A stretch of 64,000 nucleotides of DNA from positions 1-64,000 of the forward strand of contig NZ_FOKW01000009.1 in the NCBI RefSeq assembly GCF_900112205.1. The letters are read 5' to 3'. Below the pieces are notes generated by a model. The model made no database searches. It worked only from the letters and a program-made list of their open reading frames with translations, and was not told the DNA's origin. This document shows positions 27,278-28,578 of the stretch, piece by piece (position 1 is the first letter of the stretch; each line of letters opens with the position of its first letter). Source of the DNA: Natronobacterium haloterrestre. Lineage in GTDB: Archaea > Halobacteriota > Halobacteria > Halobacteriales > Natrialbaceae. Made by a program: the position numbers and the translations under genes.

Positions 27278-28088
27278 GGAGCGCCTCGAGGACGTCGCGT
27301 TCCGCGCCGGGTACGCCGCGGTGCTCGCGTTCCTGCTGTTGCCGCTGGTGGTGGTCGTCGTCACCTCGTTCTCGAAGGCGGGACGGATCGCCTTCCCGCC
27401 CGAGAGCTACTCGCTCGTCTGGTACGGCGAGTTTCTCCAGAGCGCCCGCTGGATCGGCGCGTTCGTCAACAGCCTCGTCGTCGGCGTCGGCACGGCGCTT
27501 CTGGCGACGCTTCTGGGCGTCCTCGGTGCGTTCGGCCAGGAACTCGAGGCCGACGCCGGCGGCGATGGGATCGTGGGCGCGGTCCTGGTGCCGATCGTCC
27601 TGCTCCCGCTTTTGGTCCCGCCGGTCATCCTCGGGATCACGCTGTTGCTGTACTTCAACGAGGTCGGCCTGCGGGGCTCGTACACGAGCATCGTCCTTGC
27701 GCATACGCTGTGGGCGACGCCGCTCGTCTACTTCGTGATGCGGTCGGTGTTCAGCCGGTTCGACTGGCAGCAACTCGACGCGGCCCACGACCTCGGGGCG
27801 GGTCCGGTTCGGTCGTTCGTCCACGTCGTCCTGCCGAACGTGAAACACGGCATCTTCGTGGGCGGCCTGCTCGCCTTTATCATCAGCCTCCAGGAGTTCG
27901 TGATGGCGCTGTTCCTGTCGACGCCGTCGACGGAGACGATCCCGGTGCTTGCCTGGACCGAGATCCGGCAGGCGCTCGATCCGATGGTCAGCGTCGTTTC
28001 GACGTTCCTGATCGTTATCTCCGTCGCAGCGATCGCACTCGCCGCGCTCGTGACGAACCTCGAGTGGGTCTCGCGACAGCTGTCCTGA
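27258..28088 (+). CDS. ABC transporter permease (PotC type)
   Basis: 276 aa from a GTG start that overlaps the preceding permease, with GGAGGTGA just upstream acting as a strong ribosome-binding site inside that gene. It has six helices and the EAA loop DAAHDLGAGPVRSFVHVVLP. It is the last gene of the transporter operon. Confidence 0.93.
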   Translation: MSSTLHRERLEDVAFRAGYAAVLAFLLLPLVVVVVTSFSKAGRIAFPPESYSLVWYGEFLQSARWIGAFVNSLVVGVGTALLATLLGVLGAFGQELEADAGGDGIVGAVLVPIVLLPLLVPPVILGITLLLYFNEVGLRGSYTSIVLAHTLWATPLVYFVMRSVFSRFDWQQLDAAHDLGAGPVRSFVHVVLPNVKHGIFVGGLLAFIISLQEFVMALFLSTPSTETIPVLAWTEIRQALDPMVSVVSTFLIVISVAAIALAALVTNLEWVSRQLS

Positions 28089-28255: not shown

Positions 28256-28486
28256 GGAGGGAATTACGTTTCGACGTTTCAGGCTGATATCAACGCTTCC
28301 GCGAATATCGCACGACTGGTTGACCCGTGGGGAGAGAGCGTCCCGCTTGACAGGGCGGAGCGCAATGACTCGCCTCGGGATGGGAGCGGTTGTGACACCG
28401 CCACGACTCACCGTGAGACGAGCTCACCACAGCAGATGACTCCCACGGCCTTCCAAGAGTCGAAACCCTCTGCCAGTGACGACTGA
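28256..28486 (+). pseudogene. tnpB: 3' remnant of an IS200/IS605-type tnpB gene
   Basis: Only the C-terminal 75 or so codons of a TnpB (RNA-guided nuclease of IS200/IS605/IS1341 elements) survive. They include FQADINASANIARLVDPWGE, which holds the last RuvC aspartate (ADINA), and the family-typical tail TAFQESKPSASDD before the TGA at 28486. The zinc finger and earlier RuvC motifs are absent. The sequence from 28089 to about 28255 does not continue the gene, so most of the element has been deleted. The remnant abuts the ABC transporter operon. Confidence 0.75.
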
Positions 28487-28489
28487 CTG

Positions 28490-28545
28490 GTATTCCCCAT
28501 GCGTGGGAAGCCTCGCCGTTTACGGCGAGGAGGATGTCACCACCT
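28490..28545 (+). mobile_element. right end/omega-RNA hairpin of the IS200/IS605 remnant
   Basis: Directly after the tnpB stump is CCTCGCCG-TTTA-CGGCGAGG (28511-28530), a perfect 8-bp stem with a 4-nt loop. It is flanked by GGGAAG and AGGATGTCA. Such hairpins form the right end of IS200/IS605 elements and the scaffold part of the guide RNA transcribed over the 3' end of tnpB. The exact element boundary is not visible. Confidence 0.65.
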
Positions 28546-28578
28546 CCTGGCGGAAACGAAAAGGCCGAGCGAGGGCTT

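What the first reader, a model, noticed from the sequence alone, without database searches (positions are those of the whole stretch)
28256..28545. Orphan tnpB 3' end with intact right-end/guide-RNA hairpin
Seen: the last 75 codons of TnpB, including the ADINA RuvC aspartate, plus the CCTCGCCG-TTTA-CGGCGAGG hairpin. Known: the 3' end of tnpB overlaps an abundant omega-RNA in haloarchaea. Inferred: the stump could still make a guide-type RNA usable by a TnpB from elsewhere, or simply be decay.
Basis: partly seen in the sequence, partly recalled or inferred. Interest (0 to 1): 0.5.

Follow-up and report, generated by a model that had tools for sequence, protein, structure and literature searches.

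The report
Broken transposon tail with RNA hairpin
This is the leftover last piece of a common transposon of salt-loving archaea; its guide-RNA end still looks intact, but its cutting enzyme is gone and no matching one was found in this genome, so it is most likely an ordinary, fairly recent fossil.

Summary
Window 28266-28540 is the last 275 bp of an IS200/IS605 element of the ISHla19/ISHhu2 group (about 89-93% identical to long copies). It keeps some 73 TnpB codons with the third RuvC aspartate, the omega-RNA scaffold and a perfect right-end hairpin (28511-28530). Left end, tnpA and about 83% of tnpB are gone, and so is the left-flank motif CTATC seen beside 17 of 20 family left ends. A sister species lacks the insert. 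The stump keeps 36 of 37 scaffold columns invariant in 27 relatives, so its RNA would probably still fold. Against a live guide RNA: no same-family TnpB was found in this draft genome (nearest 46%), the guide has no second exact match there, and the presumed target has no exact match in viral contigs. The hairpin is shared with elements whose TnpB is about 25% identical, so it may be kept as a transposase site. At least 11 other genomes of 392 carry 3' stumps of this family with other breakpoints. I read it as decay; transcription is untested. A weak, unplanned excess of 3' over 5' remnants (11 to 2), and short tnpB-less elements with the same hairpin in this genus, are leads for orphan guide RNAs, not proof.

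The parts
28266..28540 (+). 5'-truncated IS200/IS605 element remnant (ISHla19/ISHhu2 group), element nt 1575-1849 of 1849
   Evidence: blastn to other copies
28265..28486 (+). 3' end of tnpB: about 73 codons plus stop, including ADINA (third RuvC Asp region)
   Evidence: tblastn with ISHla19 TnpB, residues 347-419, 83.6%; translation
28432..28540 (+). omega-RNA scaffold region (GCAGATGAC ... GATGTCAC)
   Evidence: 36 of 37 columns invariant in 27 relatives kept, the exception being C at 28443; fold z -2.59; sub-threshold Rfam HgcC hit 28435-28547
28511..28530 (+). right-end hairpin, 8-bp stem, TTTA loop
   Evidence: sequence; compensatory changes in relatives
28541..28556 (+). guide-position sequence (flanking DNA after the right end), inferred
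   Evidence: starts directly after TGTCAC, where the copies diverge; no second exact match in the genome
28242..28265 (.). 24 nt of unknown origin left of the break, without counterpart in the sister species
   Evidence: comparison with L038; no left-end resemblance seen by eye

Best explanation
An IS200/IS605 element of the ISHla19/ISHhu2 group inserted between an ABC-transporter operon and a convergent gene that reads as archaeal CPSF1 (gene name recalled, not tested). This happened after the split from the nearest held sister species. A deletion running in from the left then removed the target motif, left end, tnpA and about 83% of tnpB. What remains is an immobile remnant with no current function, its right-end hairpin intact because the event is fairly recent. 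Shown: homology, boundaries, absence in the sister, loss of the left end and of the CTATC motif, scaffold integrity. Inferred: the order insertion-then-deletion, recency, lack of function. Any RNA would most likely come from read-through of the upstream operon.
For: Sharp homology limits 28266-28540. Left ends start after CTATC in 17 of 20 read; no + strand CTATC lies between 21139 and 39488 of the window. G002 has 41 bp where the window has 321 bp. 17 differences from the family consensus; 15 changed codons, 10 nonsynonymous. One substitution hits a column invariant in 27 of 27 relatives. 11 other genomes carry verified 3' remnants with other breakpoints. No same-family copy beyond the stump in the own genome.
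Against: Scaffold and hairpin are almost perfectly kept; none of nine rare substitutions falls in the last 63 nt, though the chance of that is about 0.1 (my arithmetic). 3' remnants outnumber 5' remnants 11 to 2, which plain decay does not require. Orphan relatives are transcribed in Thermococcus and Pyrococcus (passages of PMC4247193, PMC3124441). The genome is a draft of 31 contigs broken at repeats, so a same-family copy could be hidden.
Confidence: 0.83

Rival explanations
1. Orphan guide RNA: the stump is transcribed (own promoter or read-through), processed to an omega-RNA whose guide starts at 28541, and loaded in trans by another TnpB of the cell, which would then cut CTATC plus guide-matching DNA, that is, the empty allele.
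For: 36 of 37 invariant scaffold columns kept. 24 PF07282 matches in the genome, among them a 46%-identical TnpB without internal stops, with D, E and D motifs read by eye and a broadly similar scaffold (L019). Orphan HgcC and sRkB/sRkC RNAs are transcribed in other archaea (passages).
Against: No same-family TnpB found in the genome. The guide has one other match, with 1 mismatch; the reversed control pattern has four with up to 2. CTATC plus guide has no exact match in viral contigs. The L019 scaffold differs in its stems. The stump was not found at this place in the 4 other congeners. In P. abyssi four of six similar loci lack promoter and expression (passage).
Confidence: 0.1
2. The hairpin is kept as a transposase (TnpA) recognition end rather than as RNA, and a TnpA acting in trans could still act on it.
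For: The last 36 nt are identical to those of L016, whose TnpB is about 25% identical. Left-end sequence is likewise shared with places beside the L015 and L017 tnpB genes (86% over 72 nt, 81% over 83 nt).
Against: The left end is absent and both ends are needed for excision (established for IS608 and ISDra2, recalled). This explains conservation of the hairpin in the family rather than a present function of the stump.
Confidence: 0.04
3. The hairpin serves as a terminator or 3'-end element between the convergent ABC operon and the aCPSF1-like gene.
For: It lies in the 490-bp gap between convergent reading frames ending at 28088 and 28579.
Against: The sister species does without it. No T-run follows the hairpin.
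Confidence: 0.03

Closest known systems
ISHla19 (Halorubrum lacusprofundi pR1SE2) and ISHhu2 (Halobacterium hubeiense pSTJ001), IS200/IS605 elements
   Same: Last 275 nt 92-93% identical, same right end TGTCAC, same tnpB frame and stop
   Different: The window copy lacks the left end, tnpA and about the first 346 TnpB residues
Haloarchaeal sotRNA/omega-RNA (Rfam RF02656)
   Same: Position over the tnpB 3' end; its last two hairpins match weakly at 28494-28531 (16 bits, E 0.053)
   Different: Far below the gathering score of 88; in the same genome L010 and L017 pass it
HgcC ncRNA (Rfam RF00062)
   Same: Full-length match to 28435-28547, 27.3 bits, E 1.8e-4 in the 401-bp search
   Different: Below the gathering score of 50
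PATEs, palindrome-associated transposable elements of Haloquadratum (PMC3119063, passages)
   Same: Transposase-free leftovers of IS605 elements; the paper reports core deletions and C-terminal remnants
   Different: PATEs have palindromes near both termini; the stump has only the right end

Membership tests
IS200/IS605 element, ISHla19/ISHhu2 group | tnpB C-terminal homology and right end | tested here: met
IS200/IS605 element, ISHla19/ISHhu2 group | left end and adjacent CTATC motif | tested here: not met
IS200/IS605 element, ISHla19/ISHhu2 group | tnpA gene and full TnpB (D-E-D) | tested here: not met
   only the third Asp region remains; homology to the full element covers nt 1575-1849 only
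omega-RNA (functional guide RNA) | conserved scaffold and terminal hairpin | tested here: met
   36 of 37 invariant columns; hairpin
omega-RNA (functional guide RNA) | transcription and processing | not testable with these tools
   no RNA data for this strain
omega-RNA (functional guide RNA) | cognate TnpB in the same cell | tested here: not met
   no same-family copy in the draft genome; nearest 46%; cross-use not testable
sotRNA RF02656 | Rfam gathering score 88 | tested here: not met
   16 bits
HgcC RF00062 | Rfam gathering score 50 | tested here: not met
   27.3 bits
PATE | palindromes near both termini | tested here: not met
   right end only

The most novel reading that the evidence does not exclude
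Haloarchaeal tnpB 3' stumps like this one, together with short tnpB-less elements that carry the same right end, form a retained pool of orphan guide RNAs that other TnpBs of the cell use in trans to guard insertion sites against the empty allele. The excess of 3' over 5' remnants and the intact scaffolds would be its signature.
Probability: 0.08. Interest if true: 0.65.

Novelty: new member of a known kind. Interest (0 to 1): 0.18.

Why it matters
As a remnant it is ordinary. It is useful as a clean test case, because the likely target motif (CTATC), right end (TGTCAC), scaffold and guide position of this TnpB group can be read off the alignments. If orphan stumps were shown to load TnpB in trans, many annotated transposon fossils would have to be re-read as guide RNAs.

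Tried and rejected
Selection on the stump: 17 differences from consensus, none of the nine rare ones in the last 63 nt, but with a chance near 0.1 (my arithmetic), so no claim. In five other truncated or degenerate copies (L076, L080, L083, L084, L088) the last 63 nt hold 15 of 75 differences, about their share of the length.

Codon test: the window and L076, L080, L083, L084, L088, L089 give 62 nonsynonymous to 30 synonymous changed codons (summed by hand). Intact copies in that table also show more nonsynonymous than synonymous changes, so I drew nothing from it.

Scaffold alignment A1: of 33 relatives listed I gave 27. Left out: L147 and L159 (near-copies of rows kept) and the truncated or degenerate L080, L084, L088, L089, of which some have a damaged hairpin. 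Whether every kept relative has an intact tnpB was not checked.

Retention bias, first version: a query on the start of tnpB gave no certain 5'-only locus (G032 ambiguous at a contig edge) against eight near-full-length 3'-only loci, window and the both-ended G144 included. I rejected it because it is not the mirror image of the 3' query. Mirror queries with two classes of left end gave two true 5'-only remnants (G061, G056) against 11 3'-only, p 0.022, all at 85% or more over 110 nt or more. Caveats: unplanned; about 2 candidates scored per genome; other left-end classes would be missed; the listing is cut near E 5e-27. Left out: contig-edge cases (G127, G141, G032, G262, G328), the short 86% matches G152 and G314, whose upstream may be another tnpB, G144, and the window. 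Plasmids do not help: at that threshold one 3'-only locus, the same as G227, and no 5'-only.

Guide target: one other place in the own genome, 1 mismatch; viral contigs none (exact match only).

Published role of orphan tnpB ends as guides: one search found no paper with four of its five terms. The 20 listed papers (of 71) and (of 1,073) showed, by title and abstract start, only PMC3119063 as being about such elements. One search found no paper holding both HgcC and TnpB. The library lacks most subscription journals. No structure prediction was run, the stump being 73 residues of a known fold.

Full report
What is there. The + strand at 28266-28540 is the last 275 bp of an IS200/IS605 element. 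A blastn search of plasmids gave 59 records with a match, the best being ISHla19 of Halorubrum lacusprofundi (92.8%) and ISHhu2 of Halobacterium hubeiense (92.4%). The homology begins at 28266 and ends at 28540 or 28541. The remaining frame matches TnpB residues 347-419 at 83.6% and includes QADINAS, the third RuvC aspartate region (motif name recalled). The hairpin CCTCGCCG-TTTA-CGGCGAGG sits at 28511-28530.

Element boundaries. Of 35 family members, truncated ones included, 34 end in TGTCAC and 1 in TGTTAC. The DNA beyond differs, except that L033 and L075 are one locus. Left ends could be read in 17 of 20 fetched loci and in 3 plasmid loci; 17 of these 20 are preceded by CTATC, the others by CTCTC, CCATC and CTGTC. 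By analogy with known IS605 elements (recalled) this is the target and TAM motif. In the window no + strand CTATC occurs between 21139 and 39488, and homology to the full element covers nt 1575-1849 only. The stump has lost its left end and motif, so it should not move by the usual route. At the TAM position it carries GTCAC, so by that rule its RNA would not direct cutting of the stump itself (inference).

History. Five genomes of the genus were searched, own included. In G002 the flanks align at 92 and 99%, and 41 bp stand where the window has 321 bp. In G001, G003 and G004 only sequence in or near the flanking genes aligns and no stump match lies there; what fills the gap in G001 (about 3 kb) and G003 (about 1.7 kb) was not examined. 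G004 has two long copies of the family elsewhere (415 TnpB residues aligned at 90 and 94%). The stump differs from the family consensus at 17 of 275 sites; 15 codons are changed, 10 nonsynonymously. This fits a fairly recent insertion followed by a deletion, or arrival as a stump; the order is inferred.

Could it still be a guide RNA? The scaffold keeps 36 of the 37 columns that are invariant in 27 relatives; the exception is C at 28443. 4 of the 8 hairpin pairs show compensatory changes in the alignment, and the 109-nt RNA folds at z -2.59. No Rfam family reaches its gathering score in the window. Below threshold, the stump hits HgcC (27.3 bits, E 1.8e-4) and the sotRNA RF02656 (16 bits, E 0.053). 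[quoted passage not shown] If so here, the stump has lost its usual promoter. [quoted passage not shown] the P. furiosus one is antisense to its transposase gene (PMC4247193, passages). In Pyrococcus abyssi two expressed RNAs belong to six similar loci, one of which is the 3' end of an OrfB gene; the other four lack promoter and expression (PMC3124441, passages). So an orphan can be transcribed, but need not be.

Against a working guide: the genome has 24 PF07282 matches but no same-family TnpB beyond the stump. The nearest is 46% identical over residues 3-379 (C16:326244-327386), with D, E and D motifs (by eye) and a broadly similar but not identical scaffold. The assembly has 31 contigs, so a collapsed copy cannot be excluded. 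The stump DNA otherwise matches only 34-41 nt of right end at six places. The 16-nt guide has one other match, with 1 mismatch, against four in the reversed control. CTATC plus guide has no exact match in viral contigs. The last 36 nt are identical to those of L016, whose TnpB is about 25% identical, so the hairpin may be kept for TnpA.

Is it unusual? Of 392 genomes of the order 298 have a match to the query, many only to the right end. I verified 11 other 3'-only remnants (85% or more over at least 110 nt): G186, G216, G205, G310, G247, G251, G306, G157, G227, G347 and G181. Homology starts at element nt 1486, 1397, 1014, 1544, 1402, 1587, 1507, 1612, 1661, 1701 and 1725; the window's starts at 1575. 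None of these 11 genomes shows a tnpB-start match of 85% or more. All starts lie upstream of the scaffold start, about 1741, but a 110-nt minimum makes later ones invisible. G247 has a diverged tnpB-like stretch further upstream, and the G181 remnant abuts another element. Of the 11 loci with a whole hairpin in the fetched stretch, window included, 10 have 8 of 8 stem positions paired, wobbles counted, and one has 7 of 8; G306 was cut by my own fetch. Mirror searches with two classes of left end gave 2 true 5'-only remnants, G061 and G056. 11 to 2 gives p 0.022, unplanned and with the caveats in Tried and rejected. It is a lead.

Verdict. An ordinary 5'-truncated IS remnant with an intact right end. 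Competence of its RNA is plausible; its use is unshown and no matching partner was found here. New member of a known kind, low interest.

Noticed in passing
own genome C16:312781-313155 (L029, - strand) and C8:85928-86303 (L030 1164-1539); ends of contigs C16, C29, C18, C28: Short (about 376 bp) tnpB-less, PATE-like elements with nearly the same right-end hairpin and different flanks: two full copies (87% alike), plus two left-end and two right-end pieces of about 95 bp, 99% identical, at contig ends, which suggests further copies.
   Followed up: partly
L049 (G002:C1:1362690): Looks like a core-deleted version of the L016-type element: pieces matching its left part and its right end are joined without about 1.1 kb between them.
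   Followed up: no
L048, L052, L055 (G001): An insert of about 1005 bp, 99% alike in three loci and in both orientations, sits directly left of the last 72 bp of the short element; in L055 an 8-bp repeat suggests a target duplication.
   Followed up: no
own genome C15:249035-249115 (L092) and C9:283254-283353 (L094): Two very similar HgcC-like loci (sub-threshold) with no match to the own TnpBs within the fetched 3.1 kb: perhaps a second kind of orphan right end.
   Followed up: partly
own genome, 17 places: The Rfam HgcC model (function called unresolved in PMC5732400, passage) gives 17 sub-threshold hits; 9 lie within 300 nt downstream of PF07282 matches. HgcC may thus be a TnpB omega-RNA. 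Against: none passes the cut-off, and at the same limit the control rang in 5 of 14 genomes, two of them bacteria. No held paper names both HgcC and TnpB, though PMC4247193 ties HgcC to transposase genes.
   Followed up: partly
L164 1789-1915 (G181): A 3' remnant of this family abuts an oppositely oriented element whose TnpB is 51% identical.
   Followed up: no
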